Shown here: positions 20,368-64,000 of the stretch, piece by piece
Position numbering within the stretch: position 1 is the first letter of the stretch
How the letters are laid out: each line of letters begins with the position of its first letter
Program-made: the position numbers and the translations under genes
Notes under the pieces: generated by a model
The model's database searches: none
Seen by the model: the letters and a program-made list of their open reading frames with translations, nothing else
What the model was told of the DNA's origin: nothing
DNA from: Muricea muricata
Taxonomy: Eukaryota; Cnidaria; Anthozoa; Malacalcyonacea; Plexauridae
Direction of reading: 5' to 3'
DNA: 64,000 nt
Assembly (NCBI GenBank): GCA_963855995.1
Contig: OY979726.1
Coordinates: 7,230,701 to 7,294,700 of the forward strand

Positions 20368-20371
20368 ACAT

Positions 20372-22198: not shown

Positions 22199-25100
22199 CG
22201 ATAGTTTGAGCGCCGAAAACGTGATTGCGGACTTGCTAAGTTCTCCAATTTCGATTTAGAAGCTGTCTTTTAGGTCCGCGCTTGCAATATATGATTGGGC
22301 TCAACTCGTTCATTTTAGCACTCAAAACATCATTTTAAGCTCTAAAACGTCGCCGTGATCGATTTGAGACGGCAATTATTGTTGGAAGTCCGAGCATTTT
22401 TTTACGCTCAAATCGCTTCGAGAACGCCTAAAACGCGATTTTGATTATTGTAACAGCGTTTCTTTTCAGTCTCAATGCACGTTGTAGGTTTCTAATTTCA
22501 ACATGCTATTTTGCTGATGTCGATAGTTTGAGCGCCGAAAACATCATTGCGGACATGCTAAGTTCTCCAATTTCGATTTTGAAGCTGTCTTTTAGATACG
22601 CGATTTCAATATATCATTGTGCTAAACTCGTTCTTATTAGCACTCAAAACATCATTTTAAGATCTAAAACGTCGCCGTGATCGATTTGAGACGGCAATTT
22701 TTAGTTGGCACTCCGAGCATGTTTTTACGCTCAAGTCGCTTCCAGAACGCCTAAAACGCAATTTTGATGATTGTAAGAACGTTTCTTTTCAGTGTCAAAG
22801 CATGTTGTAGGTTTCTCATTTCAACATGCTATTTTGCTGATGTCGATAGTTTGAGCGCCTTAAACGTGATTGCGGACTTGCTAAGTTCTCCAATTTCGAT
22901 ATAGAAGCTGTCTTTTAGGTCCACGATTGCAATATATCATTGGGTTCAACTCGTTCATTTTAGCACTCAAAACATCATTTTAAGCTCTAAAACGTCGCCG
23001 TGATCGATTTGAGACGGCAATTATTGTTGGAAGTCCGAGCATTTTTTTACGCTCAAATCGCTTCGAGAACGCCTAAAACGCGATTTTGATTATTGTAAGA
23101 GCGTTTCTTTTCAGTCTCAATGCACGTTGTAGGTTTCTAATTTCAACATGCTATTTTGCTGATGTCGATAGTTTGAGCGCCGAAAACATCATTGCGGACA
23201 TGCTAAGTTCTCCAATTTCGATTTAGAAGCTGTCTTTTAGATACGCGATTTCAATATATCATTGTGCTAAACTCGTTCTTATTAGCACTCAAAACATCAT
23301 TTTAAGATCTAAAACGTCGCCGTGATCGATTTGAGACGGCAATTTTTAGTTGGCACTCCGAGCATGTTTTTACGCTCAAGTCGCTTCCAGAACGCCTAAA
23401 ACGCAATTTTGATGATTGTAAGAACGTTTCTTTTCAGTGTCAAAGCATGTTGTAGGTTTCTCATTTCAACATGCTATTTTGCTGATGTCGATAGTTTGAG
23501 CGCCGAAAACGTGATTGCCGACTTGCTAAGTTCTCCAATTTCGATTTAGAAGCTGTCTTTTAGGTCCGCGCTTGCAATATATCATTGGGCTCAACTCGTT
23601 CATTTTAGCACTCAAAACATCATTTTAAGCTCTAAAACGTCGCAGTGATCGATTTGAGACGGCAATTTTTAGTTGGAAGTCCGAGCATGTTTTTACGCTC
23701 AAATCGCTTCGAGAACGCCTAAAACGCGATTTTGATTATTGTAAGAGCGTTTCTTTTCAGTCTCAATGCACGTTGTAGGTTTCTAATTTCAACATGCTAT
23801 TTTGCTGATGTCGATAGTTTGAGCGCCGAAAACATGATTGCGGACGTGCTAAGTTCTCCAATTTCGATTTAGAAGCTGTCTTTTAGATACGCGATTGCTA
23901 TATATCATTGTGCTCAACTCGTTCTTTTTAGCACTCAAAACATCATTTTAAGCTCTAACACGTCGCCGTGATCGATTTGAGACGGATATTTTTAGTTTGG
24001 AGTCTGAGCATGTTTTTACGCTCAAATCGCTTCGAGAACGCCTAAAACGCGACTTTGATGATTGTAAGAGCGTTTCTTTTCAGTGTCAAAGCATGTTGTA
24101 GGTTTCTCATTTCAACATGCTATTTTGCTGATGTCGATAGTTTGAGCGCCTTAAACGTGATTGCGGACTTGCTAAGTTCTCCAATTTCGATTTAGAAGCT
24201 GTCTTTTAGGTCCACGATTGCAATATATCATTGGGCTCAACTCGTTCATTTTAGCACTCAAAACATCATTTTAAGCTCTAAAACGTTGCCGTGATCGATT
24301 TGAGACGGCAATTATTGTTGGAAGTCCGAGCATTTTTTTACGCTCAAATCGCTTCGAGAACGCCTAAAACGCGATTTTGATTATTGTAAGAGCGTTTCTT
24401 TTCAGTCTCAATGCACGTTGTAGGTTTCTAATTTCAACATGCTATTTTGCTGATGTCGATAGTTTGAGCGCCGAAAACATGATTGCGGACATGCTAAGTT
24501 CTCCAATTTCGATTTAGAAGCTGTCTTTTAGATACGCGATTGCTATATATCATTGTGCTCAACTCGTTCTTTTTAGCACTCAAAACATCATTTTAAGCTC
24601 TAAAACGTCGCCGTGATCGATTTGAGACGGATATTTTTAGTTTGGAGTCTGAGCATGTTTTTACGCTCAAATCGCTTCGAGAACGCCTAAAACGCGACTT
24701 TGATGATTGTAAGAGCGTTTCTTTTCAGTGTCAAAGCATGTTGTAGGTTTCTCATTTCAACATGCTATTTTGCTGATGTCGATAGTTTGAGCGCCGAAAA
24801 CGTGATTGCGGACTTGCTAAGTTCTCCAATTTCGATTTAGAAGCTGTCTCTTAGGTCCACGATTGCAATATATCATTGGGCTCAACTCGTTCATTTTAGC
24901 ACTCAAAACATCATTTTAAGCTCTAAAACGTCGCCGTGATCGATTTGAGACGGATATTTTTAGTTTGCAGTCCGAGCATGTTTTTACGCTCAAATCGCTT
25001 AGAGAACGCCTAAAACGCGATTTTGATTATTGTAAGAGCGTTTCTTTTCAGTCTCAATGCACGTTGTAGGTTTCTAATTTCAACATGCTATTTTGCTGAT

Positions 25101-28100
25101 GTCGATAGTTTGAGCGCCGAAAACATGATTGCGGACATGCTAAGTTCTCCAATTTCGATTTAGAAGCTGTCTTTTAGATACGCGATTGCTATATATCTAT
25201 GTGCTCAACTCGTTCTTTTTAGCATTCAAAACATCATTTTAAGCTCTAAAACGTCGCCGTGATCGATTTGAGACGGATATTTTTAGTTTGCAGTCTGAGC
25301 ATGTTTTTACTCTCAAATCGCTTCGAGAACGCCTAAAACGCGATTTTGATGATTGTAAGAGCGTTTCTTTTCAGTCTCAATGCACGTTGTAGGTTTCTAA
25401 TTTCAACATGCTATTTTGCTGATGTCGATAGTTTGAGCGCCGAAAACATGATTGCGGACATGCTAAGTTCTCCAATTTCGATTTAGAAGCTGTCTTTTAG
25501 ATACGCAATTGCTATATATCATTGTGCTCAACTCGTTCTTTTTAGCACTCAAAACATCATTTTAAGCTCTAAAACGTCGCCGTGATCGATTTGAGACGGA
25601 TATTTTTAGTTTGCAGTCTGAGCATGTTTTTACGCTCAAATCGCTTCGAGAACGCCTAAAACGCGACTTTGATGATTGTAAGAGCGTTTCTTTTCAGTGT
25701 CAAAGCATGTTGTAGGTTTCTCATTTCAACATGCTATTTTGCTGATGTTGATAGTTTGAGCGCCGAAAACATGATTTCGGACATGCTAAGTTCTCCAATT
25801 TCGATTTAGAAGCTGTCTTTTACATACGCGATTTCAATATATCATTGTGCTCAACTCGTTCTTTTTAGCACTCAAAACATCATTTTAAGCTCTAAAACGT
25901 CGCCGTGATCGATTTGAGACGGATATTCTTAGTTTGCAGTCTGAGCATGTTTTTACGCTCAAATCGCTTCGAGAACGCGTAAAACGCGATTTTGATGATT
26001 GTAAGAACGTTTCTTTTCAGACTCAAAGCATGTTGTAGGTTTCTCATTTCAACATGCTATTTTGCTGATGTCGATAGTTTGAGCGCCGAAAACATGATTG
26101 CGGACATGCTAAGTTCTCCAATTTCGATTTAGAAGCTGTCTTTTAGATACGCGATTTCAATATATCATTGGGCTCAACTCGTTCATTTGAGCACTCAAAA
26201 CATCATTTTAAGCTCTAAAACGTCGCCGTGATCGATTTGAGACGGATATTTTTAGTTTGCAGTCCGAGCATGTTTTTACGCTCAAATCGCTTCGAGAACG
26301 CCTAAAACGCGATTTTGATGATTGTAACAACGTTTCTTTTCAGTCTAAAAGCATGCTGTAAGTTTCTCATTTCAACATGCTATTTTTCTGATGTCGATAG
26401 TTTGAGCGCTGAAAACGTGATTGCGGACTTGCTAAGTTCTCCAATTTCGATTTAGAAGCTGTCTTTTAGGTCCGCGATTGCAATATATCATTGTGCTCAA
26501 CTCGTTCTTTTTAGCACTCAAAACATCATTTTAAGCTCTAAAACGTCGCCGTGATCGATTTGAGACGGATATTTTTAGTTTGCAGTCTGAGCATGTTTTT
26601 ACGCTCAAATCGCTTCGAGAACGCCTAAAACGCGATTTTGATGATTGTAAGAGCGTTTCTTTTCAGTGTCAAAGCATGTTGTAGGTTTCTCATTTCAACA
26701 TGCTATTTTGCTGATGTCGATAGTTTGAGCGCCGAAAACGTGATTGCGGACTTGCTAAGTTCTCCAATTTCGATTTAGAAGCTGTCTTGTAGGTCCACGA
26801 TTGCAATATATCATTGGGCTCAACTCGTTCATTTTAGCACTCAAAACATCATTTTAAGCTCTAAAACGTCGCCGTGATCGATTTGAGACGGCAATTATTG
26901 TTGGAAGTCCGAGCATTTTTTTAGGCTCAAATCGCTTCGAGAACGCCTAAAACGCGATTTTGATTATTGTAAGAGCGTTTCTTTTCAGTCTCATTGCACG
27001 TTGTAGGTTTCTAATTTCAACATGCTATTTTGCTGATGTCGATAGTTTGAGCGCCGAAAACATCATTGCGGACATGCTAAGTTCTCCAATTTCGATTTAG
27101 AAGCTGTCTTTTAGATACGCGATTGCTATATATAATTGTGCTCAACTCGTTCTTTTTAGCACTCAAAACATCATTTTAAGCTCTAAAACGTCGCCGTGAT
27201 CGATTTGAGACGGATGTTTTTAGTTTGCAGTCTGAGCATGTTTTTACGCTCAAATCGCTTCGAGAACGCCTAAAACGCGACTTTGATGATTGTAAGAGCG
27301 TTTCTTTTCAGTGTCAAAGCATGTTGTAGGTTTCTCATTTCAACATGCTATTTTGCTGATGTCGATAGTTTGAGCGCCGAAAACGTGATTGAAGACTTGC
27401 TAAGTTCTCCAATTTCGATTTAGAAGCTGTCTTTTAGGTCCGCGATTGCAATATATCATTGGGCTCAACTCGTTCATTTTAGCACTCAAAACATCATTTT
27501 AAGCTCTAAAACGTCGCCGTGATCGATTTGAGACGGCAATTATTGTTGGAAGTCCGAGCATTTTTTTACGCTCAAATCGCTTCGAGAACGCCTAAAACGC
27601 GATTTTGATTATTGTAAGAGCGTTTCTTTTCAGTCTCAATGCACGTTGTTGGTTTCTAATTTCAACATGCTATTTTGCTGATGTCGATAGTTTGAGCGCC
27701 GAAAACATGATTTCGGACATGCTAAGTTCTCCAATTTCGATTTAGAAGCTGTCTTTTACATACGCGATTTCAATATATCATTGTGCTCAACTCGTTCTTT
27801 TTAGCACTCAAAACATCATTTTAAGCTCTAAAACGTCGCCGTGATCGATTTAAGACGGATATTTTTAGTTTGCAGTCTGAGCATGTTTTTACGCTAAAAT
27901 TGCTTCGAGAACGCCTAAAACGCGATTTTGATGATTGTAAGAACGTTTCTTTTCAGTCTCAAAGCATGTTGTAGGTTTCTCATTTCAACATGCTATTTTG
28001 CTGATGTCGATAGTTTGAGCGCCGAAAACATGATTGCGGACATGCTAAGTTCTCCAATTTCGATTTAGAAGCTGTCTTTTAGATACGCGATTTCAATATA

Positions 28101-30365
28101 TCATTGGGCTCAACTCGTTCATTTTAGCACTCAAAACATCATTTTAGGCTCTAAAACGTCGCCGTGATCGATTTGAGACGGATATTTTTAGTTTGCAGTT
28201 TGAGCATGTTTTTACGCTCAAATCGCTTCGAGAACGCCTAAAACGCGATTTTGATGATTGTAAGAACGTTTCTTTTCAGTCTAAAAGCATGCTGTAAGTT
28301 TCTCATTTCAACATGCTATTTTTCTGATGTCGATAGTTTGAGCGCTGAAAACGTGATTTCGGACTTGCTAAGTTCTCCAATTTCGATTTAGAAGCTGTCT
28401 TTTAGGTCCGCGATTGCAATATATCATTGGGCTCAACTCGTACTTTTTAGCACTCAAAACATCATTTTAAGCTCTAAAACGTCGCCGTGATCGATTTAAA
28501 ACGGCAATTTTTAGTTGGCAGTCCGAGCATGTTTTTACGCTCAAATCGCTTCCAGAACGCCTAAAACGCGATTTTGATGATTGTAAGAACGTTTCTTTTC
28601 AGTCTCAAAGCATGTTGTAGGTTTCTCATTTCAACATGCTATTTTGATGATGTCGATAGTTTAGCGCCGAAAACGTGATTGCGGACTTGCTAAGTTCTCC
28701 AATTTCGATTTAGAAGCTGTCTTTTAGGTCCGCGCTTGCAATATATCATTGGGCTCAACTCGTTCATTTTAGCACTCAAAACATCATTTTAAGCTCTAAA
28801 ACGTTGCCGTGATCGATTTGAGACAGATATTTTTAGGTTGCAGTCCGAGCATGTTTTTACGCTCAAATCGCTTCGAGAACGCCTAAAACGCGATTTTGAT
28901 TATTGTAAGAGCGTATCTTTTCAGTCTCAATGCACGTTGTAGGTTTTTAATTTCAAAATGCTATTTTGCTGATGTCGATAGTTTGAGCGCCGAAAACATG
29001 ATTGCGGACATGCTAAGTTCTCCAATTTCGATTTAGAAGCTGTCTTTTAGATACGCGATTGCTATATATCATTGTGCTCAACTCGTTCTGTTTAGCACTC
29101 AAAACATCATTTTAAGCTCTAAAACGTCGCAGTGATCGATTTGAGACGGATATTTTTAGTTTGCAGTCCGAGCATGATTTTACGCTCAAATCGCTTCGAG
29201 AACGCCTAAAACGCGATTTTAATTATTGTAAGAGCGTTTCTTTTCAGTCTCAATGCACGTTGTAGGTTTCTAATTTCAACATGCTATTTTGCTGATGTCA
29301 ATAGTTTGAGCGCCGAAAACATGATTGCGGACATGCTAAGTTCTCCAATTTCGATTTAGAAGCTGTCTTTTAGATACGCGATTGCTATATATCATTGTGC
29401 TCAACTCGTTCTTTTTAGCGCTCAAAACATCATTTTAAGCTCTAAAACGTCGCCGTGATCGATTTGAGACGGATATTTTTAGTTTGCAGTCTGAGCATGT
29501 TTTTACGCTCAAATCGCTTCGAGAACGCCTAAAACGCGACTTTGATGATTGTAAGAGCGTTTCTTTTCAGTGTCAAAGCATGTTGTAGGTTTCTCATTTC
29601 AACATGCTATTTTGCTGATGTCGATAGTTTGAGCGCCGAAAACGTGATTGCGGACTTGCTAAGTTCTCCAATTTCGATTTAGAAGCTGTCTCTTAGGTCC
29701 ACGATTGCAATATATCATTGGGCTCAACTCGTTCTTTTTAGCGCTCAAAACATCATTTTAAGCTCTAAAACGTCGCCGTGATCGATTTGAGACGGATATT
29801 TTTAGTTTGCAGTCTGAGCATGTTTTTACGCTCAAATCGCTTCGAGAACGCCTAAAACGCGACTTTGATGATTGTAAGAGCGTTTCTTTTCAGTGTCAAA
29901 GCATGTTGTAGGTTTCTCATTTCAACATGCTATTTTGCTGATGTCGATAGTTTGAGCGCCGAAAACGTGATTGCGGACTTGCTAAGTTCTCCAATTTCGA
30001 TTTAGAAGCTGTCTCTTAGGTCCACGATTGCAATATATCATTGGGCTCAACTCGTTCATTTTAGCACTCAAAACATCATTTTAAGCTCTAAAACGTCGCC
30101 GTCATCGATTTGAGACGGCAATTATTGTTGGAAGTCCAAGCATTTTTTTACGCTCAAATCGCTTCGAGAACGCCTAAAACGCGATTTTGATTATTGTAAG
30201 AGCGTTTCTTTCAGTCTCAATGCACGTTGTAGGTTTCTAATTTCAACATGCTATTTTGCTGATGTCGATAGTTTGAGCGCTGAAAACATGATTTCGGACA
30301 TGCTAAGTTCTCCAATTTCGATTTAGAAGCTGTCTTTTACATACGCGATTTCAATATATCATTGT
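22199..30365 (+). repeat. Satellite array, segment 3 (first super-unit, left of the retrotransposon)
   Basis: The satellite resumes at the second CGATAGTT copy. 22199-24780 equals 42179-44760 at offset 19980 (for example CGCAGTGATC at 23641 and 43621). 24960-29400 equals 45586-50020 at offset 20626. Near 29410-30060 one monomer is present twice here but once in the second super-unit and in the insertion-free relative at 1614-2815, so it is a recent single-monomer gain. No gene is present; the 68- and 65-codon ORFs near 22000-22260 are chance frames across the junction. Confidence 0.96.
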
Positions 30366-30617
30366 ATGTGTATGTATGTAAAACTTTATTTCAACACGCT
30401 ATCTTCGTCAACTATTTACATCAGTTGGTTTCCACGAAGGGCGTACTATGTACATTAAATCTAAGATATGTTACGAAACACACATTAATTAAACTTTTAA
30501 TTACTAAAATAAATTTAACCAAACCCTTCCCTTAACCATTAATATTGCCAGGCTTCCCCCTCCCCCTTCTTCCTAATCTGCATTTACCCAATTATCCTCT
30601 TCATTCTGGACATGAAA
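30366..30617 (-). other. 3' UTR and tail of retrotransposon copy 1
   Basis: About 250 bp lie between the ORF2 stop and the target duplication. Landmarks on the plus strand are a pyrimidine tract CTTCCCCCTCCCCCTTCTTC near 30555, TTTATT at 30385-30390 (AATAAA on the coding strand) and GTATGTATGT at the very end. The 3' end is the part normally recognised by the element's own RT; here that is inference. Confidence 0.8.
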
Positions 30618-33515
30618 TTAGCTTAGATGCAATTTCACCTTTGTTTTAAAGGAAATTAGGGACTCTGCCATCTTGACATCTTGCGGAAGACTATTCCATA
30701 AAACTGCTCCACTATACCCAAATGTTTTCTTTAGAAATTCAGTTTTCGGTTTTTTAATCGAGAGATCAGTTTCGCTATTACGCAATTCATAGCTATTCTG
30801 TGATACATTTCTTCGAGAAAATAGATCTTTAAGGTTTGGTGCAGTGTGGTTTGCGAGTACTTTATAAATGAACACTAATTTATTTAGTGCTCGTCTATTA
30901 GCCAGTTTTTCCCACCCTAAGGTGTTTAGCACTTCAGAAGATCTTACATCGTAGTCAGCTCCGGTGATCACCCTTGCTGCACGATTTTGAAATTTTTGCA
31001 ATTTGTCTTGAAGTCCCAAACCACAATTATCCCATAGCGGAGAACAGTAATCGAAATGAGGTTGTATCAATGTTTTGTAAACATCTTGTAAAGTTTTGTG
31101 TGGGACATAAGGTTTTATCCTTTTCATTGCCCCTATTCCAGCACTAATCTTATGACATACGGAATCAATGTGTTTCTCCCAATTCAATTTTTGATCTAAA
31201 TCTACCCCTAAGCACTTAAATGTACTAGTCTGCGGGACTGGAATTTTGTTCATCTCAACAGTTCTATTCCCAACTTTGTTATTTAAATTATGCAATGATC
31301 CAATAAACATAACTTTTGTTTTTTTTGCATGAGACTTCAGTTTGTTTTTAGCAAGCCATTTTTGAATATTGGCAAGGTCCATATTCAAATTCTCAACAAG
31401 TGTGTCATAATCATGTGAGGAGGAGAATATTTGAGTGTCATCGGCATATAGGCCTGGAGTTGTCTTCTCTAAGATGTCAGGCATATCATTGATATATAGC
31501 AAGAACAATAGCGGACCAAGTATTGATCCCTGTGGAATTCCACATATTATTTTCCTTGCAGAAGAAGTTTGTTCATTAACAAAACACACTTGTTTCCTAT
31601 CCTTTAAGTATGATTGAAACCATTTTAGTTCAGTATCATGAATACCAAATTGGGTTTCAAGCTTTTCTAATAATATCTGATGGTTCACCGAGTCAAATGC
31701 TTTACATATATCAAGAAAAACAACTCCGTTTATTTTGCCATCATCCATGTCCATTAGCCATTGATCACACATTTGTATAAGAGCGGCCAAGGTTCCGTGT
31801 TTTGGCCGGAACCCAGATTGGAATTTTGAAAGTGCCGCATGTCTATTTAAAAAGCCATATATTTGACTAAAGACCTCACCTTCAAATATTTTACTAACAA
31901 CAGGGAGGACTGAGATTGGTCTATAATTTTCACATTTACGCTTATCCTCAGATTTATAAATTGGTATGACCCTAGCTAATTTCCACTCATCTATATAAAT
32001 ACCAGTCCTGATGGATAAGTTAAATATGAAAGTTAAAGATGGTGCAATAAAGCCTGCTATCATTTTTAGAATCTTTGCTGGTATACCATCCATACCTGTG
32101 GCTTTTGAGGCATTTAGTTTTTGCAAGCGTATGAAAACATTATCTATGGTAATATCTGAAAAGTGAAAATATTCTTTAGGAGGGTTGACATTTCTTTCAG
32201 AATTGCATGTATCAGTACTTTGATTTCCTGATTCAGCAGCCATTTTCATACCAATATTTATGAAGTATTCATTAAACTTTTCAGCCATAATTTTATCGTC
32301 AGAAATAACCTTGTCATTTATTATCAATTCATTAATGTTTGCTCTCTTACCCTTTCTACCTAAAAGGGTATTTATCCAGGCCCATCCATTTTTACTATCT
32401 TTCATTTGAGAACAAGTCTCAATTTTATCACAAAAGTACTTAGATTTTGCTTTCCGCATGTCTATGTTTACTTTATTCCGTACTGTTTTATACAATGCCC
32501 ACTGGGTCTCAGAATCATGTTTTATGGCTTGTTTTTTGTGATAATCCCTTTTTCTCATCAGTTGTTTAATTTGAGGGTTAATCCATGGCACAGAGTTATT
32601 CCTTATTCTTTTGTGACAAATAGGGGCATGTCTGTTAAGTGCATCTAATAAGAGTGATTTCCACACTTGCCAGCATATATTTGGATCTACAAACTGATAG
32701 ACTATGTCCCAAGGCAATTGAGACACATCCTGGATAAAATCATTCTCTATAAAATTTTTGAAATTACGAACTTCGCGAGTTTTTTGTCTTCCTTTTGGTG
32801 GGATAAATTTTCTCACAGCATAAATAAGGCTATGATCTGAAATTCCCAGGTGAATAACACCTGATCTAGAAATATTTTCTGGAGTATTTGTCAATATTAA
32901 ATCAATTAGTGTAGCAGATGTAGGAGTTAGTCTTGTACACTCTTTAATAAGTTGGTCTATCTGATAGAGAGAGCATAGAAATTGTAACTTACATGTGTGT
33001 GCATCAGGCACATTCTTACTGACATCGCAGTTTAAATCCCCTATAAGAATTAACTCCTTATCTTCATTGTCACATTTTGATAAAAAGCCTGTCCAAGAAT
33101 CAAATATATTCATATGGGAATTTGGTGGTCTATACCATGTACTAATTAGCAGAGATTTATTATAGGGTAAATTTAGTTCAATGCAAACCATCTCAAGACC
33201 ATCAGGGACTATATCTTTCCTATCTGAGAATGATATGGTGTCGCGAACATAAAGAACCACACCTCCACCAAACCTATTTCGATCTTTTCGGATTATATTG
33301 AAACCATGTATATGTATCTCATCATTTGAAATCTGATTATCAATTTTGGATTCATTAATTGCAAGAATGTCAAGGGCTTTGTTACTAAGAATTATGCGAA
33401 TTTCATCCAGATGTTTCATTAAGCTATTAACATTTAAGTTGGCTATTTTCAGACCCTTAGTTTTAGCTAATATATTAATCTCATTATCAGTGCCTAATGA
33501 AGGATTACATGACAC
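30618..33515 (-). CDS. Non-LTR retrotransposon ORF2: AP-like endonuclease and reverse transcriptase (copy 1)
   Basis: An intact frame of 965 codons, the usual size for CR1/L2/jockey-type ORF2. It nicks target DNA and primes cDNA synthesis from the nick. Endonuclease at about residues 22-235: IANLNVNSL, NESKID (E55), STWYRPPN (125-132), GDLN (159-162), DLILTN and SDHSL (226-230). RT at about residues 500-780: RVIPIYKSEDKRKCENYRP, FQSGFRP, FLDICKAFDS (D602), GIPQGSILGPLL, YADD (690-693) and KCLGVDLD. A C-terminal region follows; no RNase H was seen. The frame is open from 33599, overlaps the end of ORF1 by 73 nt in the -1 frame and contains no ATG until residue 33, beyond the first endonuclease motif. 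The listed start is a GTG chosen only for convenience. Translation probably needs frameshifting or reinitiation. Confidence 0.95.
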   Translation of the reverse strand: MSCNPSLGTDNEINILAKTKGLKIANLNVNSLMKHLDEIRIILSNKALDILAINESKIDNQISNDEIHIHGFNIIRKDRNRFGGGVVLYVRDTISFSDRKDIVPDGLEMVCIELNLPYNKSLLISTWYRPPNSHMNIFDSWTGFLSKCDNEDKELILIGDLNCDVSKNVPDAHTCKLQFLCSLYQIDQLIKECTRLTPTSATLIDLILTNTPENISRSGVIHLGISDHSLIYAVRKFIPPKGRQKTREVRNFKNFIENDFIQDVSQLPWDIVYQFVDPNICWQVWKSLLLDALNRHAPICHKRIRNNSVPWINPQIKQLMRKRDYHKKQAIKHDSETQWALYKTVRNKVNIDMRKAKSKYFCDKIETCSQMKDSKNGWAWINTLLGRKGKRANINELIINDKVISDDKIMAEKFNEYFINIGMKMAAESGNQSTDTCNSERNVNPPKEYFHFSDITIDNVFIRLQKLNASKATGMDGIPAKILKMIAGFIAPSLTFIFNLSIRTGIYIDEWKLARVIPIYKSEDKRKCENYRPISVLPVVSKIFEGEVFSQIYGFLNRHAALSKFQSGFRPKHGTLAALIQMCDQWLMDMDDGKINGVVFLDICKAFDSVNHQILLEKLETQFGIHDTELKWFQSYLKDRKQVCFVNEQTSSARKIICGIPQGSILGPLLFLLYINDMPDILEKTTPGLYADDTQIFSSSHDYDTLVENLNMDLANIQKWLAKNKLKSHAKKTKVMFIGSLHNLNNKVGNRTVEMNKIPVPQTSTFKCLGVDLDQKLNWEKHIDSVCHKISAGIGAMKRIKPYVPHKTLQDVYKTLIQPHFDYCSPLWDNCGLGLQDKLQKFQNRAARVITGADYDVRSSEVLNTLGWEKLANRRALNKLVFIYKVLANHTAPNLKDLFSRRNVSQNSYELRNSETDLSIKKPKTEFLKKTFGYSGAVLWNSLPQDVKMAESLISFKTKVKLHLS

Positions 33516-33526
33516 TTTTGTACAAT

Positions 33527-49800: not shown

Positions 49801-50668
49801 TGATTTTACGCTCAAATCGCTTCGAGAACGCCTAAAACGCGATTTTAATTATTGTAAGAGCGTTTCTTTTCAGTCTCAATGCACGTTGTAGGTTTCTAAT
49901 TTCAACATGCTATTTTGCTGATGTCAATAGTTTGAGCGCCGAAAACATGATTGCGGACATGCTAAGTTCTCCAATTTCGATTTAGAAGCTGTCTTTTAGA
50001 TACGCGATTGCTATATATCATTGTGCTCAACTCGTTCTTTTTAGCGCTCAAAACATCATTTTAAGCTCTAAAACGTCGCCGTGATCGATTTGAGACGGAT
50101 ATTTTTAGTTTGCAGTCTGAGCATGTTTTTACGCTCAAATCGCTTCGAGAACGCCTAAAACGCGACTTTGATGATTGTAAGAGCGTTTCTTTTCAGTGTC
50201 AAAGCATGTTGTAGGTTTCTCATTTCAACATGCTATTTTGCTGATGTCGATAGTTTGAGCGCCGAAAACGTGATTGCGGACTTGCTAAGTTCTCCAATTT
50301 CGATTTAGAAGCTGTCTCTTAGGTCCACGATTGCAATATATCATTGGGCTCAACTCGTTCATTTTAGCACTCAAAACATCATTTTAAGCTCTAAAACGTC
50401 GCCGTCATCGATTTGAGACGGCAATTATTGTTGGAAGTCCAAGCATTTTTTTACGCTCAAATCGCTTCGAGAACGCCTAAAACGCGATTTTGATTATTGT
50501 AAGAGCGTTTCTTTCAGTCTCAATGCACGTTGTAGGTTTCTAATTTCAACATGCTATTTTGCTGATGTCGATAGTTTGAGCGCTGAAAACATGATTTCGG
50601 ACATGCTAAGTTCTCCAATTTCGATTTAGAAGCTGTCTTTTACATACGCGATTTCAATATATCATTGT
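34851..50668 (+). repeat. Satellite array, segment 4 (between the two retrotransposons)
   Basis: About 15.8 kb of uninterrupted monomers in the same orientation. From 34851 the order follows the second super-unit at offset 20303, but one monomer (the type with TTAGAGAACG, seen at 3549 and 55905) is missing here, so the offset becomes 20626 at 35593. 44800-45590 matches the region right of the DNA transposon at 10000-10780. No gene is present; the 79-codon ORFs at 39196, 40486 and 42421 are satellite frames opened by one base change (GATTTTGAAG for GATTTAGAAG). Confidence 0.96.
37676..43490 (+). repeat. Regular 645 bp dimer and 1290 bp tetramer higher-order repeat
   Basis: B monomers come in two subtypes. 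B1 has GCGCCTTAAACG, CGATATAGAAG and GGTCCACGATTG (37676, 38322, 39612, 40902, 41547, 42837). B2 has GCGCCGAAAACG and GGTCCGCGCTTG (38966, 40256, 42190, 43483). The A monomer after B2 has GATTTTGAAG (39196, 40486 and 42421 frames); after B1 it has GATTTAGAAG. Spacings of 1290 and 1935 bp are exact multiples of 645, so the tetramer is the current unit of homogenisation with an occasional extra dimer. Confidence 0.9.
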
Positions 50669-50920
50669 ATGTGTATGTATGTAAAACTTTATTTCAACAC
50701 GCTATCTTCGTCAACTATTTACATCAGTTGGTTTCCACGAAGGGCGTACTATGTACATTAAATCTAAGATATGTTACGAAACACACATTAATTAAACTTT
50801 TAATTACTAAAATAAATTTAACCAAACCCTTCCCTTAACCATTAATATTGCCAGGCTTCCCCCTCCCCCTTCTTCCTAATCTGCATTTACCCAATTATCC
50901 TCTTCATTCTGGACATGAAA
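50669..50920 (-). other. 3' UTR and tail of retrotransposon copy 2
   Basis: It appears identical to the corresponding 252 bp of copy 1, including the AATAAA on the coding strand (plus positions 50688-50693) and the ACATACATACACA tail. Confidence 0.8.
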
Positions 50921-53818: not shown

Positions 53819-53829
53819 TTTTGTACAAT

Positions 53830-55158
53830 TTATCTGTTCAGATTCATTATTGTCTTCAACAGTTCTCCCAGTTGATTTATTGTGCTCATTGGAAAATCCT
53901 GTTTAGGATGCTTTTTTGGGTGCAGTGAGCTTAATGATTGTCCATCTCTAAGGAACTTAATGAAATGTGAAGCTAGTATTGCTGAGCCCTTCGCATTTAG
54001 ATGTAGCTTGCTTGAGTTCAGACATGTTTTATCTATTGACAAATTATTTATAAATTTCACACCATGTTTAGAAGACAAGGTCTGAACTTTCTCATTGATT
54101 TCTTTTATCTTCAATGTTAAATCAATATCCTGTCTTGGTGTGATGCCAGAAATTCCAATTTTAGAGTTTGGGAACTTCTGTTTAACTAACATAATAAGCT
54201 CTTCCATATTACTAACACATTTTTCAGTAGTCTCAACAGGGACATCATTTGTCCCTGTATGAACAATAACATGTGAGGGGGGCAACTGAATATTAATTTT
54301 AGTGAGTTCATTATTAATTTCCGGTGTTGTTTTACCAGGATATGTGTACTTCTGAACCCTCCTCTTAGACAGTTTTACTGGATTAACGTTTTTAATAATT
54401 GAATCACCAATAATAACAATACCTTGCGTTGGTACCCGCCCTTTGACAGGAGTATGCTCTGTTGCTCTGCTACTGTTGCCTTTATTACCTTGGATTGTGT
54501 CATGAGTTAACTTTGGGCAATTGCTTGCATTGTCACCTTTTTCTGGAAAAATGTTATCATTATCGACGGCCATATTCTGACCAGTTGTAGGTTGTTGTGT
54601 TTCAGAATTAATTTCAATTACTGAGGCATGAAGATCACTATTTTGTGTATTCGCTTCATCATTCAGCACATCATATCTATTCAATTCAAAATTCATAGTG
54701 GCTTGATCTTCTTTACTTTGTTTAATACCCGATACCGTTTTCCACTTCTCGCCATCTTGTCGTTCGTAATGTCCTTGCTCAAATTCTTGTTGTTGAAGTT
54801 TCATGGCCGTAACCAAGCTGTCTCTTTCATGCTCAAGTTCTTTGACTTTTGAATTTAGATCAGATGTAATAAGTGCGAAATTCAAGTTCTTTTCACGTAA
54901 CTCGGCGTTTTCCCTCACCAAATTGTCTTTGTCTATTTTCAGTTCTTTGACAGTAGCCTCCATGACAAACATCGGTACCGATCTGGCTTTTAAATTATTT
55001 ACATCAATTTCGAGACCTTCAATCTTTAAGTTCGTACTTTCTGCGAATTCCTGCATTTGCCGTCTAAGGTCTTCTACAAGCGAATTCTCGATACCTTCCA
55101 TATATAAGCTTTTATCGTCGACATCACTGTCATGAACAATATGAAGTTCCGCCATCAT
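53830..55158 (-). CDS. Non-LTR retrotransposon ORF1: coiled coil and SGNH-like esterase domain (copy 2)
   Basis: The protein is identical to that of copy 1: 442 codons from the first ATG at 55158-55156, N-terminal coiled coil, then GDS, PGKT, GTND and LHLNAKG blocks with Ser in place of the DxxH aspartate. The frame again continues upstream into the satellite to TTG at 55188. Because the junction is inherited with the super-unit, any promoter activity in the satellite would act on both copies in the same way. Confidence 0.9.
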   Translation of the reverse strand: MMAELHIVHDSDVDDKSLYMEGIENSLVEDLRRQMQEFAESTNLKIEGLEIDVNNLKARSVPMFVMEATVKELKIDKDNLVRENAELREKNLNFALITSDLNSKVKELEHERDSLVTAMKLQQQEFEQGHYERQDGEKWKTVSGIKQSKEDQATMNFELNRYDVLNDEANTQNSDLHASVIEINSETQQPTTGQNMAVDNDNIFPEKGDNASNCPKLTHDTIQGNKGNSSRATEHTPVKGRVPTQGIVIIGDSIIKNVNPVKLSKRRVQKYTYPGKTTPEINNELTKINIQLPPSHVIVHTGTNDVPVETTEKCVSNMEELIMLVKQKFPNSKIGISGITPRQDIDLTLKIKEINEKVQTLSSKHGVKFINNLSIDKTCLNSSKLHLNAKGSAILASHFIKFLRDGQSLSSLHPKKHPKQDFPMSTINQLGELLKTIMNLNR

Positions 55159-58100
55159 TGTGCTCAACTCGTTCTTTTTAGCACTCAAAACATCATTTTA
55201 AGCTCTAAAACGTCGCCGTGATCGATTTGAGACGGATATTTTTAGTTTGCAGTCTGAGCATGTTTTTACGCTCAAATCGCTTCGAGAACGCCTAAAACGC
55301 GACTTTGATGATTGTAAGAACGTTTCTTTTCAGTCTCAAAGCATGTTGTAGGTTTCTCATTTCAACATGCTATTTTGCTGATGTCGATAGTTTGAGCGCC
55401 GAAAACGTGATTGCGGACTTGCTAAGTTCTCCAATTTCGATTTAGAATCTGTCTTTTAGATACGCGATTTCAATATATCATTGGGCTCAACTCGTTCATT
55501 TTAGCACTCAAAACATCATTTTAAGCTCTAAAACGTCGCCGTGATCGATTTGAGACGGATATTTTTAGTTGGCAGTCCGAGCATGTTTTTACGCTCAAAT
55601 CGCTTCCAGAACGCCTAAAACGCGATTTTGATGATTGTAAGAACTTTTTTTTTCAGTCTCAAAGCATGTTGTAGGTTTCTCATTTCAACATGCTATTTTG
55701 CTGATGTCGATAGTTAAGCGCCGAAAACGTGATTCCGGACTTGCTAAGTTCTCCAATTTCGATTTAGAAGCTGTCTTTTAGGTCCGCGCTTGCAATATAT
55801 CATTGGGCTCAACTCGTTCATTTTAGCACTCAAAATCTTAATTTTAAGCTCTAAAACGTCGCCGTGATCGATTTGAGACGGATATTTTTAGTTTGCAGTC
55901 CGCGCATGTTTTTACGCTCAAATCGCTTAGAGAACGCCTAAAACGCGATTTTGATTATTGTAAGAGCGTTTCTTTTCAGTCTCAATGCACGTTGTAGGTT
56001 TCTAATTTCAACATGCTATTTTGCTGATGTCGATAGTTTGAGCGCCGAAAACATGATTGCGGACATGCTAAGTTTTCCAATTTCGATTTAGAAGCTGTCT
56101 TTTAGATACGCGATTGCTATATATCATTGTGCTCAACTCGTTCTTTTTAGCATTCAAAACATCATTTTAAGCTCTAAAACGTCGCCGTGATCGATTTGAG
56201 ACGGATATTTTTAGTTTGCAGTCTGAGCATGTTTTTACTCTCAAATCGCTTCGAGAACGCCTAAAACGCGATTTTGATGATTGTAAGAGCGTTTCTTTTC
56301 AGTGTCAAAGCATGTGGTAGGTTTCTCATTTCAACATGCTATTTTGCTGATGTCGATAGTTTGAGCGCCGAAAACGTGATTGCGGACTTGCTAAGTTCTC
56401 CAATTTCGATTTAGAAGCTGTCTTTTAGGTCCGCGATTGCAATATATCATTGGGCTCAACTCGTTCATTTTAGCACTCAAAACATAATTTTTTACTCTAA
56501 AACGTCGCCGTGATCGATTTGAGACGGCAATTTTTAGTTGGCAGTCCGAGCATGTTTTTACGCTCAAATCGCTTCCAGAACGCCTAAAACGCGATTTTGA
56601 TGATTGTAAGTGCGTTTCTTTTCAGTGTCAATGCATGTTGTAGGTTTCTCATTTCAACATGCTATTTTGCTGATGTCGACAGTTTGAGCGCCTTAAACGT
56701 GATTGCGGACTTGCTAAGTTCTCCAATTTCGATTTAGAAGCTGTCTTTTAGGTCCGCGATTGCAATATATCATTGGGCTCAACTCGTTCATTTTAGCACT
56801 CAAAACATCATTTTAAGCTCTAAAACGTCGCCGTGATCGATTTGAGACGGCAATTATTGTTGGAAGTCCGAGCATTTTTTTACGCTCAAATCGCTTCGAG
56901 AACGCCTAAAACGCGATTTTGATTATTGTAAGAGCGTTTCTTTTCAGTCTCAATGCACGTTGTAGGTTTCTAATTTCAAGATGCTATTTTGCTGATGTCG
57001 ATAGTTTGAGCGCCGAAAACATCATTGCGGACATGCTAAGTTCTCCAATTTCGATTTAGAAGCTGTCTTTTAGATACGCGATTTCAATATATCATTGTGC
57101 TCAACTCGTTCTTATTAGCACTCAAAACATCATTTTAAGATCTAAAACGTCGCCGTGATTGATTTGAGACGGCAATTTTTAGTTGGCACTCCAAGCATGT
57201 TTTTACGCTCAAGTCGCTTCCAGAACGCCTAAAACGCGATTTTGATGATTGTAAGAACGTTTCTTTTCAGTCTCAAAGCATGTTGTAGGTTTCTCATTTC
57301 AACATGCTATTTTGCTGATGTCGATAGTTTGAGCGCCGAAAACGTGATTGCGGACTTGCTAAGTTCTCCAATTTCGATATAGAAGCTGTCTTTTAGGTCC
57401 ACGATTGCAATATATCATTGGGCTCAACTCGTTCATTTTAGCACTCAAAACATCATTTTAAGCTCTAAAACGTCGCCGTGATCGATTTGAGACGGCAATT
57501 ATTGTTGGCAGTCCGAGCATGTTTTTACGCTCAAATCGCTTCGAGAACGCCTAAAACGCGATTTTGATTATTGTAAGAGCGTTTCTTTTCAGTCTCAATG
57601 CACGTTGTAGGTTTCTAATTTCAACATGCTATTTTGCTGATGTCGATAGTTTGAGCGCCGAAAACATGATTGCGGACATGCTAAGTTCTCCAATTTCGAT
57701 TTAGAAGCTGTCTTTTAGATACGCGATTGCTATATATCATTGTGCTCAACTCGTTCTTTTTAGCACTTAAAACATCATTTTAAGCTCTAAAACGTCGCCG
57801 TGATCGATTTGAGACGGATATTTTTAGTTTGGAGTCTGAGCATGTTTTTACGCTCAAATCGCTTCGAGAACGCCTAAAACGCGACTTTGATGATTGTAAG
57901 AGCGTTTCTTTTCAGTGTCAAAGCATGTTGTAGGTTTCTCATTTCAACATGCTATTTTGCTGATGTCGATAGTTTGAGCACCGAAAACGTGATTGCGGAC
58001 TTGCTAAGTTCTCCAATTTCGATTTAGAAGCTGTCTTTTAGGTCCGCGATTGCAATATATCATTGGGCTCAACTCGTTCATTTTAGCACTCAAAACATCA

Positions 58101-61100
58101 TTTTAAGCTCTAAAACGTCGCCGTGATCGATTTGAGACGGCAATTTTTAGTTGGCAGTCCGAGCATGTTTTTACGCTCAAATCGCTTCCAGAACGCCTAA
58201 AACGCGATCTTGATGATTGTAAGAGCGTTTCTTTTCAGTGTCAATGCATGTTGTAGGTTTCTCATTTCAACATGCTATTTTGCTGATGTCGATAGTTTGA
58301 GCGCCTTAAACGTGATTGCGGACTTGCTAAGTTCTCCAATTTCGATATAGAAGCTGTCTTTTAGGTCCACGATTGCAATATATCATTGGGCTCAACTCGT
58401 TCATTTTAGCACTCAAAACATCATTTTAAGCTCTAAAACGTCGCCGTGATCGATTTGAGACGGCAATTATTGTTGGAAGTCCGAGCATTTTTTTACGCTC
58501 AAATCGCTTCGAGAACGCCTAAAACGCGATTTTGATTATTGTAAGAGCGTTTCTTTTCAGTCTCAATGCACGTTGTAGGTTTCTAATTTCAACATGCTAT
58601 TTTGCTGATGTCGATAGTTTGAGCGCCGAAAACATCATTGCGGACATGCTAAGTTCTCCAATTTCGATTTAGAAGCTGTCTTTTAGATACGCGATTTCAA
58701 TATATCATTGTGCTAAACTCGTTCTTATTAGCACTCAAAACATCATTTTAAGATCTAAAACGTCGCCGTGATCGATTTGAGACGGCAATTTTTAGTTGGC
58801 ACTCCGAGCATGTTTTTACGCTCAAGTCGCTTCCAGAACGCCTAAAATGCAATTTTGATGATTGTAAGAACGTTTCTTTTCAGTGTCAAAGCATGTTGTA
58901 GGTTTCTCATTTCAATATGCTATTTTGCTGATGTCGATAGTTTGAGCGCCTTAAACGTGATTGCGGACTTGCTAAGTTCTCCAATTTCGATATAGAAGCT
59001 GTCTTTTAGGTCCACGATTGCAATATATCATTGGGCTCAACTCGTTCATTTTAGCACTCAAAACATCATTTTAAGCTCTAAAACGTCGCCGTGATCGATT
59101 TGAGACGGCAATTATTGTTGGAAGTCCGAGCATTTTTTTACGCTCAAATCGCTTCGAGAACGCCTAAAACGCGATTTTGATTATTGTAAGAGCGTTTCTT
59201 TTCAGTCTCAATGCACGTTGTAGGTTTCTAATTTCAACATGCTATTTTGCTGATGTCGATAGTTTGAGCGCCGAAAACATCATTGCGGACATGCTAAGTT
59301 CTCCAATTTCGATTTAGAAGCTGTCTTTTAGATACGCGATTTCAATATATCATTGTGCTAAACTCGTTCTTATTAGCACTCAAAACATCATTTTAAGATC
59401 TAAAACGTCGCCGTGATCGATTTGAGACGGCAATTTTTAGTTGGCACTCCGAGCATGTTTTTACGCTCAAGTCGCTTCCAGAACGCCTAAAATGCAATTT
59501 TGATGATTGTAAGAACGTTTCTTTTCAGTGTCAAAGCATGTTGTAGGTTTCTCATTTCAATATGCTATTTTGCTGATGTCGATAGTTTGAGCGCCTTAAA
59601 CGTGATTGCGGACTTGCTAAGTTCTCCAATTTCGATATAGAAGCTGTCTTTTAGGTCCACGATTGCAATATATCATTGGGCTCAACTCGTTCATTTTAGC
59701 ACTCAAAACATCATTTTAAGCTCTAAAACGTCGCCGTGATCGATTTGAGACGGCAATTATTGTTGGAAGTCCGAGCATTTTTTTACGCTCAAATCGCTTC
59801 GAGAACGCCTAAAACGCGATTTTGATTATTGTAAGAGCGTTTCTTTTCAGTCTCAATGCACGTTGTAGGTTTCTAATTTCAACATGCTATTTTGCTGATG
59901 TCGATAGTTTGAGCGCCGAAAACATCATTGCGGACATGCTAAGTTCTCCAATTTCGATTTAGAAGCTGTCTTTTAGATACGCGATTTCAATATATCATTG
60001 TGCTAAACTCGTTCTTATTAGCACTCAAAACATCATTTTAAGATCTAAAACGTCGCCGTGATCGATTTGAGACGGATATTTTTAGTTGGCACTCCGAGCA
60101 TGTTTTTACGCTCAAGTCGCTTCCAGAACGCCTAAAACGCAATTTTGATGATTGTAAGAACGTTTCTTTTCAGTGTCAAAGCATGTTGTAGGTTTCTCAT
60201 TTCAACATGCTATTTTGCTGATGTCGATAGTTTGAGCGCCGAAAACGTGATTGCGGACTTGCTAAGTTCTCCAATTTCGATTTAGAAGCTGTCTTTTAGG
60301 TCCGCGCTTGCAATATATCATTGGGCTCAACTCGTTCATTTTAGCACTCAAAACATCATTTTAAGCTCTAAAACGTCGCCGTGATCGATTTGAGACGGCA
60401 ATTATTGTTGGAAGTCCGAGCATTTTTTTACGCTCAAATCGCTTCGAGAACGCCTAAAACGCGATTTTGATTATTGTAAGAGCGTTTCTTTTCAGTCTCA
60501 ATGCACGTTGTAGGTTTCTAATTTCAACATGCTATTTTGCTGATGTCGATAGTTTGAGCGCCGAAAACATCATTGCGGACATGCTAAGTTCTCCAATTTC
60601 GATTTTGAAGCTGTCTTTTAGATACGCGATTTCAATATATCATTGTGCTAAACTCGTTCTTATTAGCACTCAAAACATCATTTTAAGATCTAAAACGTCG
60701 CCGTGATCGATTTGAGACGGCAATTTTTAGTTGGCACTCCGAGCATGTTTTTACGCTCAAGTCGCTTCCAGAACGCCTAAAACGCAATTTTGATGATTGT
60801 AAGAACGTTTCTTTTCAGTCTCAAAGCATGTTGTAGGTTTCTCATTTCAACATGCTATTTTGCTGATGTCGATAGTTTGAGCGCCTTAAACGTGATTGCG
60901 GACTTGCTAAGTTCTCCAATTTCGATATAGAAGCTGTCTTTTAGGTCCACGATTGCAATATATCATTGGGCTCAACTCGTTCATTTTAGCACTCAAAACA
61001 TCATTTTAAGCTCTAAAACGTCGCCGTGATCGATTTGAGACGGCAATTATTGTTGGAAGTCCGAGCATTTTTTTACGCTCAAATCGCTTCGAGAACGCCT

Positions 61101-64000
61101 AAAACGCGATTTTGATTATTGTAAGAGCGTTTCTTTTCAGTCTCAATGCACGTTGTAGGTTTCTAATTTCAACATGCTATTTTGCTGATGTCGATAGTTT
61201 GAGCGCCGAAAACATCATTGCGGACATGCTAAGTTCTCCAATTTCGATTTAGAAGCTGTCTTTTAGATACGCGATTTCAATATATCATTGTGCTAAACTC
61301 GTTCTTATTAGCACTCAAAACATCATTTTAAGATCTAAAACGTCGCCGTGATCGATTTGAGACGGCAGTTTTTAGTTGGCACTCCGAGCATGTTTTTACG
61401 CTCAAGTCGCTTCCAGAACGCCTAAAACGCAATTTTGATGATTGTAAGAACGTTTCTTTTCAGTGTCAAAGCATGTTGTAGGTTTCTCATTTCAACATGC
61501 TATTTTGCTGATGTCGATAGTTTGAGCGCCGAAAACGTGATTGCGGACTTGCTAAGTTCTCCAATTTCGATTTAGAAGCTGTCTTTTAGGTCCGCGCTTG
61601 CAATATATCATTGGGCTCAACTCGTTCATTTTAGCACTCAAAACATCATTTTAAGCTCTAAAACGTCGCAGTGATCGATTTGAGACGGCAATTTTTAGTT
61701 GGAAGTCCGAGCATGTTTTTACGCTCAAATCGCTTCGAGAACGCCTAAAACGCGATTTTGATTATTGTAAGAGCGTTTCTTTTCAGTCTCAATGCACGTT
61801 GTAGGTTTCTAATTTCAACATGCTATTTTGCTGATGTCGATAGTTTGAGCGCCGAAAACATGATTGCGGACATGCTAAGTTCTCCAATTTCGATTTAGAA
61901 GCTGTCTTTCAGATACGCGATTGCTATATATCATTGTGCTCAACTCGTTCTTTTTAGCACTCAAAACATCATTTTAAGCTCTAAAACGTCGCCGTGATCG
62001 ATTTGAGACGGATATTTTTAGTTTGGAGTCTGAGCATGTTTTTACGCTCAAATCGCTTCGAGAACGCCTAAAACGCGACTTTGATGATTGTAAGAGCGTT
62101 TCTTTTCAGTGTCAAAGCATGTTGTAGGTTTCTCATTTCAACATGCTATTTTGCTGATGTCGATAGTTTGAGCGCCTTAAACGTGATTGCGGACTTGCTA
62201 AGTTCTCCAATTTCGATTTAGAAGCTGTCTTTTAGGTCCACGATTGCAATATATCATTGGGCTCAACTCGTTCATTTTAGCACTCAAAACATCATTTTAA
62301 GCTCTAAAACGTCGCCGTGATCGATTTGAGACGGCAATTATTGTTGGAAGTCCGAGCATTTTTTTACGCTCAAATCGCTTCGAGAACGCCTAAAACGCGA
62401 TTTTGATTATTGTAAGAGCGTTTCTTTTCAGTCTCAATGCACGTTGTAGGTTTCTAATTTCAACATGCTATTTTGCTGATGTCGATAGTTTGAGCGCCGA
62501 AAACATGATTGCGGACATGCTAAGTTCTCCAATTTCGATTTAGAAGCTGTCTTTTAGATACGCGATTGCTATATATCATTGTGCTCAACTCGTTCTTTTT
62601 AGCACTCAAAACATCATTTTAAGCTCTAAAACGTCGCCGTGATCGATTTGAGACGGATATTTTTAGTTTGGAGTCTGAGCATGTTTTTACGCTCAAATCG
62701 CTTCGAGAACGCCTAAAACGCGACTTTGATGATTGTAAGAGCGTTTCTTTTCAGTGTCAAAGCATGTTGTAGGTTTCTCATTTCAACATGCTATTTTGCT
62801 GATGTCGATAGTTTGAGCACCGAAAACGTGATTGCGGACTTGCTAAGTTCTCCAATTTCGATTTAGAAGCTGTCTTTTAGGTCCGCGATTGCAATATATC
62901 ATTGGGCTCAACTCGTTCATTTTAGCACTCAAAACATCATTTTAAGCTCTAAAACGTCGCCGTGATCGATTTGAGACGGCAATTATTGTTGGAAGTCCGA
63001 GCATTTTTTTACGCTCAAATCGCTTCGAGAACGCCTAAAACGCGATTTTGATTATTGTAAGAGCGTTTCTTTTCAGTCTCAATGCACGTTGTAGGTTTCT
63101 AATTTCAACATGCTATTTTGCTGATGTCGATAGTTTGAGCGCCGAAAACATCATTGCGGACATGCTAAGTTCTCCAATTTCGATTTAGAAGCTGTCTTTT
63201 AGATACGCGATTTCAATATATCATTGTGCTAAACTCGTTCTTATTAGCACTCAAAACATCATTTTAAGATCTAAAACGTCGCCGTGATCGATTTGAGACG
63301 GCAATTTTTAGTTGGCACTCCGAGCATGTTTTTACGCTCAAGTCGCTTCCAGAACGCCTAAAACGCAATTTTGATGATTGTAAGAACGTTTCTTTTCAGT
63401 GTCAAAGGATGTTGTAGGTTTCTCATTTCAACATGCTATTTTGCTGATGTCGATAGTTTGAGCGCCGAAAACGTGATTGCGGACTTGCTAAGTTCTCCAA
63501 TTTCGATTTAGAAGCTGTCTTTTAGGTCCGCGCTTCCAATATATCATTGGGCTCAACTCGTTCATTTTAGCACTCAAAACATCATTTTAAGCTCTAAAAC
63601 GTCGCAGTGATCGATTTGAGACGGCAATTTTTAGTTGGCAGTCCGAGCATGTTTTTACGCTCAAATCGCTTCGAGAACGCCTAAAACGCGATTTTGATTA
63701 TTGTAAGAGCGTTTCTTTTCAGTCTCAATGCACGTTGTAGGTTTCTAATTTCAACATGCTATTTTGCTGATGTCGATAGTTTGAGCGCCGAAAACATGAT
63801 TGCGGACATGCTAAGTTCTCCAATTTCGATTTAGAAGCTGTCTTTTAGATACGCGATTGCTATATATCATTGTGCTCAACTCGTTCTTTTTAGCACTCAA
63901 AACATCATTTTAAGCTCTAAAACGTCGCCGTGATCGATTTGAGACGGATATTTTTAGTTTGGAGTCTGAGCATGTTTTTACGCTCAAATCGCTTCGAGAA
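55154..64000 (+). repeat. Satellite array, segment 5 (to the window edge)
   Basis: Monomers continue to the end of the window without interruption. 55154-62816 completes super-unit copy 2. 60225-62806 is a third occurrence of the passage that follows the fold-back element (22199-24780) and of 42179-44760, so a third super-unit begins here. From 62816 it takes its own path, with a repeat of the CGCAGTGATC monomer 1935 bp after 61667. No gene is present; the 79-codon frame at 60467 is satellite. Confidence 0.96.
60225..60232. other. Empty target site for the fold-back element
   Basis: CGATAGTT occurs once here, in a monomer whose left part shares the combination GATATTTTTAGTTGGCACTCC and CGCAATTTTGATG with the left flank at 16240-16394, and whose right part matches 22207 onward. 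A second uninterrupted version is at 42179-42186. Confidence 0.85.

What the first reader, a model, noticed from the sequence alone, without database searches (positions are those of the whole stretch)
22199..62816. A satellite super-unit of about 18-20 kb that has captured and co-amplified an intact retrotransposon
The same passage starts at 22199, 42179 and 60225, and the non-LTR element sits at the same monomer position in both complete units with the same target duplication. The element copies differ at only two bases by eye, while neighbouring monomers differ by whole-monomer steps. This is a higher-order repeat three scales deep (323, 645/1290, about 20000 bp) in which array recombination, not retrotransposition, multiplies a coding-competent retroelement.
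Basis: partly seen in the sequence, partly recalled or inferred. Interest (0 to 1): 0.75.

Follow-up and report, generated by a model that had tools for sequence, protein, structure and literature searches.

The report
Jumping gene copied with its satellite
A LINE-type jumping gene landed once in a long array of 323-base DNA repeats, and a stretch of that array with the jumping gene inside it was later duplicated; the same contig also keeps a version of the stretch without it, so the order of events can be read, although duplication of this kind is already a known process.

Summary
Two copies of a non-LTR (CR1/L2-like) element, 30366-34850 and 50669-55153, lie in a 323-bp satellite with the same insertion point and 8-bp target duplication; they differ at 2 of 4485 bases. 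Their satellite flanks match for kilobases apart from whole-monomer gains and losses.

The joined flanks of copy B match it over 1600 bases without gaps (10 mismatches, 99.4%), against 97.75% at the next best place. A three-way alignment orders events: paralogous units, one insertion, duplication of the occupied unit, then a one-monomer gain and loss in the first occupied unit. Duplication within the array, not a second retrotransposition, best explains the second element.

Corrections: 22199 is the right edge of another transposon, not a unit boundary. Unit length is not constant. 1290 bp is not a separate level. "Intact" is too strong: the element begins at the ORF1 start codon, without 5' UTR; ORF2 lacks an early ATG; one esterase triad residue differs from ZfL2-1. 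A third copy beyond the window could not be tested, nor an assembly error. New member of a known kind.

The parts
1..64000 (+). 323-bp satellite array, interrupted by four inserts (satellite blocks 1-6020, 10002-16394, 22199-30365, 34851-50668, 55154-64000)
   Evidence: Tandem Repeats Finder, period 323; 136 whole monomers
136..3684 (+). Empty paralogue of the flanks of the element; unoccupied insertion site at 2815
   Evidence: joined flanks of copy B: 1600 bases at 2016-3615, 10 mismatches, no gap; three-way alignment over 136-3700; monomer-level alignment
10002..14449 (+). Further partial copy of the unit, without the element; 10002-12920 matches 44832-47750 with 1 mismatch in 2919
   Evidence: monomer-level alignment with two extra monomers at 12836 and 13159
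22199..42178 (+). Occupied unit U1, counted from the 22199 passage to its next occurrence
30358..30365 (+). Target duplication ATCATTGT, left of copy A
30366..34850 (-). Non-LTR element copy A, 4485 bp, ends in an ACAT-rich tail on its 3' side (left end in window)
30618..33599 (-). ORF2 of copy A (993 codons, stop to stop): endonuclease and reverse transcriptase
   Evidence: PF03372 and PF00078 above their cut-offs; first M at codon 61
33527..34855 (-). ORF1 of copy A from its first ATG (the first ATG lies in the target duplication, the second spans the junction): SGNH/GDSL esterase
   Evidence: PF13472; PDB 4c1b, E = 2e-10
34851..34858 (+). Target duplication ATCATTGT, right of copy A
29622..29944 (+). 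Monomer present in U1, absent from U2 and from the empty unit (gain in U1)
35404..35727 (+). Recombinant monomer of U1: left 194 bases equal the start of monomer 55707, right 190 bases equal the end of monomer 56031 (one-monomer loss in U1)
37664..43468 (+). Run of nine 645-bp dimers, of two kinds
42179..60224 (+). Occupied unit U2, counted in the same way
50661..50668 (+). Target duplication ATCATTGT, left of copy B
50669..55153 (-). Non-LTR element copy B; 2 of 4485 bases differ from copy A (ORF2 V131I and V638L)
55154..55161 (+). Target duplication ATCATTGT, right of copy B
60225..64000 (+). Start of a third unit; whether it is occupied lies outside the window
   Evidence: 22199 passage recurs here

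Best explanation
A tandem array of a 323-bp satellite already held several paralogous copies of a many-monomer unit. A CR1/L2-like LINE inserted once, by target-primed reverse transcription, into one of them; this gave the 8-bp duplication, and the insert has no 5' UTR. Later an out-of-register exchange within the array (unequal sister-chromatid exchange, or break-induced replication in an offset copy) duplicated about 15.8 kb of satellite together with the 4.5-kb element, giving copies A and B 20,303 bp apart. Smaller exchanges of one or two monomers then changed U1 (one monomer gained; one lost, leaving a recombinant monomer) and the length of the dimer runs. Shown by sequence: shared insertion point, empty paralogue, colinear flanks, recombinant monomer. 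Inferred: the exchange mechanism, the timing, and that the assembly is right.
For: Same insertion point and same ATCATTGT on both sides of both copies, 2 of 4485 bases different. Flanks colinear for kilobases: 8 mismatches in 4867 bases left of the element; at monomer level 43 aligned pairs, 40 of them differing by 0-3, with 6 whole-monomer gaps. Empty paralogue at 2815: 10 mismatches, no gap, in 1600 bases; junction monomer 1 edit there, second best of 130 candidate sites 5 edits. Three-way alignment: 22 columns where the empty unit stands apart, 2 for U2, 11 for U1, of which 9 lie in one cluster, explained by a recombinant monomer. Some segments occur three times in the contig, so the array itself is repeated beyond two haplotypes.
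Against: Only two occupied copies are seen, and U1 and U2 are close enough to be alleles. Away from the element the match is weaker (37 mismatches in 5530 bases to the right; 13 in 2581 at the 22199 passage), and three of 43 monomer pairs differ by 9, 10 and 14. No reads, no genome and no element copy from elsewhere could be consulted.
Confidence: 0.73

Rival explanations
1. Assembly artefact: two haplotypes of one occupied unit were placed one after the other, so that each chromosome carries only one element.
For: U1 and U2 differ by few bases and by whole-monomer indels, as alleles of a satellite array might. No read depth is available.
Against: The 22199 passage occurs three times (13, 10 and 5 differences in 2581) and another segment three times (4, 1 and 3 in 2212) in the one contig, and the empty paralogue is a further copy of the flanks; two haplotypes do not account for three or more copies.
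Confidence: 0.15
2. Gene conversion: an existing empty unit was overwritten by the occupied one, so that the element spread without a change in the number of units.
For: Identity is highest at the element (2 in 4485) and lower further out: 37 in 5530 to the right, 13 in 2581 at the 22199 passage. Units without the element exist.
Against: Near-identity runs from about 24.9 kb to past 36 kb in U1 coordinates, more than 11 kb, longer than usual conversion tracts (recalled), and monomer order stays colinear further out on both sides.
Confidence: 0.1
3. Two independent insertions at the same place in two units.
For: Satellites offer many near-identical targets: 130 candidate sites by a simple word search.
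Against: Same base position, same apparent target duplication, same 5' end, same tail and 2 of 4485 differences; 128 or so other candidate sites in the window are unoccupied.
Confidence: 0.02

Closest known systems
ATHILA retrotransposons copied after integration inside Arabidopsis centromere satellites (recalled; the two papers looked up are not held; a one-sentence mention of ATHILA invasion and satellite homogenization seen in PMC12046899)
   Same: A retroelement inside a satellite array multiplied by array recombination together with adjoining monomers (recalled)
   Different: LTR element in a plant; here a LINE in an unidentified genome, with an empty paralogue in the same contig
Composite repeats of ape and human chromosomes (PMC11168930, passages read; the human paper is not held)
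   Same: Tandem units found by self-alignment that are annotated apart from canonical repeats; TE and satellite pieces within them (the latter recalled)
   Different: Here only two occupied units and the start of a third are seen, and the TE has open reading frames
Zebrafish ZfL2-1 and other LINEs with an esterase ORF1 (PMC3905857, passages read; PDB 4c1b)
   Same: ORF1 with SGNH esterase, ORF2 with endonuclease and reverse transcriptase
   Different: The triad Asp (D279 of ZfL2-1) aligns with Ser here; no 5' UTR in these copies
Higher-order repeats of centromeric satellites (PMC12321929, passages read)
   Same: Divergent monomers in units whose copies are nearly identical; monomer-scale indels
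   Different: Long irregular units of dozens of monomers with variable length; centromere location unknown

Membership tests
CR1/L2 group of non-LTR retrotransposons | ORF2 with apurinic-type endonuclease followed by reverse transcriptase | tested here: met
   PF03372 at residues 55-256, PF00078 at 553-800
CR1/L2 group of non-LTR retrotransposons | Reverse transcriptase falls in the CR1 or L2 clade | not tested
   no reference set of eukaryotic elements was on hand; PDB hits were R2 and bacterial reverse transcriptases
Esterase-ORF1 LINEs (ZfL2-1 type) | ORF1 with SGNH esterase domain | tested here: met
   PF13472 above cut-off; 4c1b E = 2e-10, the only PDB match
Esterase-ORF1 LINEs (ZfL2-1 type) | Catalytic triad Ser, Asp, His | tested here: not met
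   Ser and His keep their places in the alignment, Asp aligns with Ser; activity unknown
CR1/L2 group of non-LTR retrotransposons | Short target duplications (peak 3-5 bp for L2, similar for CR1; PMC4245944) | tested here: inconclusive
   8 bp here, which may include microhomology at the 5' junction
Full-length, mobile LINE | 5' UTR with promoter upstream of ORF1 | tested here: not met
   satellite begins at the ORF1 start codon; no other copy to show the true 5' end
Higher-order satellite repeat | Units of many divergent monomers with near-identical unit copies | tested here: met
Higher-order satellite repeat | Constant unit length | tested here: not met
   anchor spacings 19980 and 18046; dimer runs of differing length
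Composite satellite with a TE in its unit | Tandem array of several units each with the TE part | tested here: inconclusive
   two occupied units and the start of a third; continuation lies outside the window and no genome is held

The most novel reading that the evidence does not exclude
This is a composite satellite caught at birth: array recombination has begun to spread a LINE with open reading frames through a satellite array as part of its repeat unit, with further copies beyond the window, so that the array itself could become a store of expressed LINE proteins.
Probability: 0.2. Interest if true: 0.6.

Novelty: new member of a known kind. Interest (0 to 1): 0.38.

Why it matters
The contig holds three stages side by side: empty unit, occupied unit and duplicated occupied unit, with scars of single-monomer exchange. 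That makes the relative order, and with reads the relative rates, of insertion, unit duplication and monomer-scale exchange accessible at one locus. It is also a reminder that near-identical LINE copies in a satellite can reflect array duplication and not recent transposition.

Tried and rejected
Looking for relatives: ORF2 and ORF1 in the viral contigs gave no confirmed relative (these scans reach close relatives only). A 27-base satellite pattern, exact matches only, gave 0 stretches in the viral and prokaryote genome collections. ORF2 against plasmids gave 4 records, all under 60% identity, three annotated as group II intron proteins and one without annotation. The host organism therefore remains unknown; that it is an animal is an inference from the element types. 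No Rfam family at gathering score and no tRNA. Papers with '323 bp', 'satellite DNA' and 'monomer': two; in one the term was absent from the main text and the clam satellites named are 332 and 429 bp (passages); the other (a plant mitochondrial genome) was not opened. Literature on TEs multiplied inside satellites: listings (one search found 0 papers), passages of PMC12046899, PMC11168930, PMC12321929, PMC5857280 and PMC8122249; I did not see this case there, and I do not claim that it is not in print. 1290 bp as a separate level was tested and dropped. Independent insertion is kept as a rival at low odds. Pfam on eight ORFs of the two other inserts gave nothing above a curated cut-off.
Full report
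WHAT IS THERE. The window is a eukaryotic satellite array (inference from its content). Tandem Repeats Finder gives a 323-bp period for 1-6020, 10002-16394, 22199-30364, 34851-50667 and 55154-64000. I cut 136 whole monomers (partial monomers at block ends left out); they differ from one another by 0 to 41 positions, median 21. Four inserts interrupt the array: 6021-10001 (3981 bp) and 16395-22198 (5804 bp), which were found once each, and a pair of non-LTR elements, copy A 30366-34850 and copy B 50669-55153. No whole genome is held for the window, so nothing beyond its ends could be tested.

THE ELEMENT. It lies on the minus strand. ORF2 (993 codons stop to stop) matches the Pfam endonuclease PF03372 and reverse transcriptase PF00078; ORF1 matches the GDSL/SGNH families PF13472 and PF00657 and, in the PDB, only the esterase of the zebrafish ZfL2-1 ORF1 protein, 4c1b, E = 2e-10 (identity of 4c1b with ZfL2-1 recalled, consistent with PMC3905857). 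On the minus strand the 5' junction reads GAGCACAATGAT|GGCGGAAC, so a start codon is made of target bases plus the first element base, and the satellite begins there. There is no 5' UTR. L2-type inserts are mostly 5'-truncated in a cell assay (2 of 33 ZfL2-1 inserts full length in DT40 cells), were joined there by microhomology or extra bases, and L2 target duplications peak at 3-5 bp (PMC4245944, passages read); the apparent 8 bp here may include a few bases of microhomology (inference). ORF2 overlaps ORF1 by 73 nt in the -1 frame and has no ATG before codon 61, so its translation would need frameshifting, reinitiation or a non-ATG start (inference). The Asp of the ZfL2-1 esterase triad (D279; PMC3905857, passages) aligns with Ser. 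The reading frames are open, but the insert is probably not mobile by itself. The two copies differ at 2 of 4485 bases, both changing ORF2 (V131I, V638L); ORF1 is identical.

THE SHARED INSERTION. Both copies are flanked on both sides by ATCATTGT. Around them the satellite of U1 maps to that of U2 by offsets +19980 (from 22199), +20626 (24913-29779, 8 mismatches in 4867), +20303 (through the element, up to about 35597) and +20626 (35538-41067, 37 in 5530). The changes of offset are whole-monomer steps. A monomer-level alignment of U1 to U2 gives 43 aligned pairs, of which 40 differ by 0-3 and three by 9, 10 and 14, with 6 whole-monomer gaps.

THE EMPTY UNIT (new here). I joined the satellite flanks of each copy at one target duplication and looked for that junction elsewhere in the window. 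At 2815 it is present and unoccupied: over 1600 bases, 10 mismatches and no gap to the flanks of B, 26 and no gap to those of A. The next best places score 97.75% with 2 gaps (B) and 97.81% with 1 gap (A). For the junction monomer the best of 130 candidate sites has 1 edit, the second 5. A three-way alignment of 136-3700 with both joined flanks has 3530 columns alike in all three, 22 where the empty unit stands apart, 11 where U1 does (9 of them at 3555-3658) and 2 where U2 does. Whole-monomer gaps: the empty unit lacks one monomer that U1 and U2 share, and U1 has one that the other two lack. By parsimony U2 keeps the older flank structure and U1 is changed. The cluster of U1 differences is explained by monomer 35404, whose left 194 bases equal the start of 55707 and whose right 190 bases equal the end of 56031: one monomer was lost by exchange between neighbours.

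ORDER OF EVENTS. (1) Paralogous units existed. (2) The element inserted into one of them. (3) The occupied unit, about 15.8 kb of satellite plus the element (20,303 less 4,493), was duplicated. (4) Monomer-scale exchanges changed U1, and the dimer runs changed length. The order follows by parsimony from the sequence; step 3 holds only if the assembly is right. The exchange mechanism (unequal sister-chromatid exchange, break-induced replication, or conversion over more than 11 kb) is inference.

22199 is the right target duplication (CGATAGTT) of the insert 16395-22198; 42179 and 60225 are the same point without that insert, so none is a unit boundary by itself. The anchor spacings are 19980 and 18046; the length of a unit varies with the dimer run. 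The 645-bp dimer is real at 37664-43468, but 1290 is not a further level: 51 mismatches of 4524 at 645, 33 of 3879 at 1290, 26 of 3234 at 1935, 32 of 2589 at 2580. A further partial unit (10002-14449) carries no element; its first 2919 bases match 44832-47750 with 1 mismatch.

AGAINST. Two occupied copies are few; the array could contain just these. U1 and U2 are close enough to be alleles. Identity falls with distance from the element, which also suits gene conversion. Against an allelic artefact, the 22199 passage occurs three times (13, 10 and 5 differences in 2581) and another segment three times (4, 1 and 3 in 2212) in one contig. Reads are needed to settle it.

COMPARISON. Retroelements copied inside satellite arrays after integration are known: ATHILA in Arabidopsis centromeres (recalled; papers not held) and composite repeats of apes (PMC11168930, passages). 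Higher-order repeats that change by small-scale indels and conversions are reviewed in PMC12321929 (passages). Esterase-type ORF1 was found only in two vertebrate groups in one survey of 448 elements (PMC4120745, abstract), while PMC3905857 aligns transposon esterases from chordates, cnidarians and sponges (passages), so the ORF1 does not fix the host. This case is a new member of a known kind, with an unusually clear empty-occupied-duplicated series.

Noticed in passing
16395-22198: Insert of 5804 bp with terminal inverted repeats (64-nt arms, 80% complementary), 8-bp target duplication CGATAGTT, four copies of a 165-bp repeat and long inner inverted repeats (310 nt at 98% and 310 nt at 95%). 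Broken reading frames inside look like a Penelope-type element with a GIY-YIG-like stretch (recalled motif; Pfam gave no support).
   Followed up: partly
6021-10001: Insert of 3981 bp with ends CACTGCAAAAAA / TTTTTTTGCAGTG and a TA target duplication; looks like a non-autonomous DNA transposon; no protein family above cut-off for the three ORFs tried.
   Followed up: partly
10002-12920 and 44832-47750: Satellite blocks 34.8 kb apart with 1 mismatch in 2919 bases. Over 2212 shared bases they differ by 1, while each differs from the block between them by 4 and 3: exchange may skip a unit.
   Followed up: partly
14394-15994: Second-best match to the joined flanks of copy A (97.8%, 1 gap): perhaps a further, rearranged counterpart of the insertion region.
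   Followed up: no
33527-33599: ORF1 and ORF2 of the LINE overlap by 73 nt in the -1 frame and ORF2 has no ATG before codon 61.
   Followed up: no
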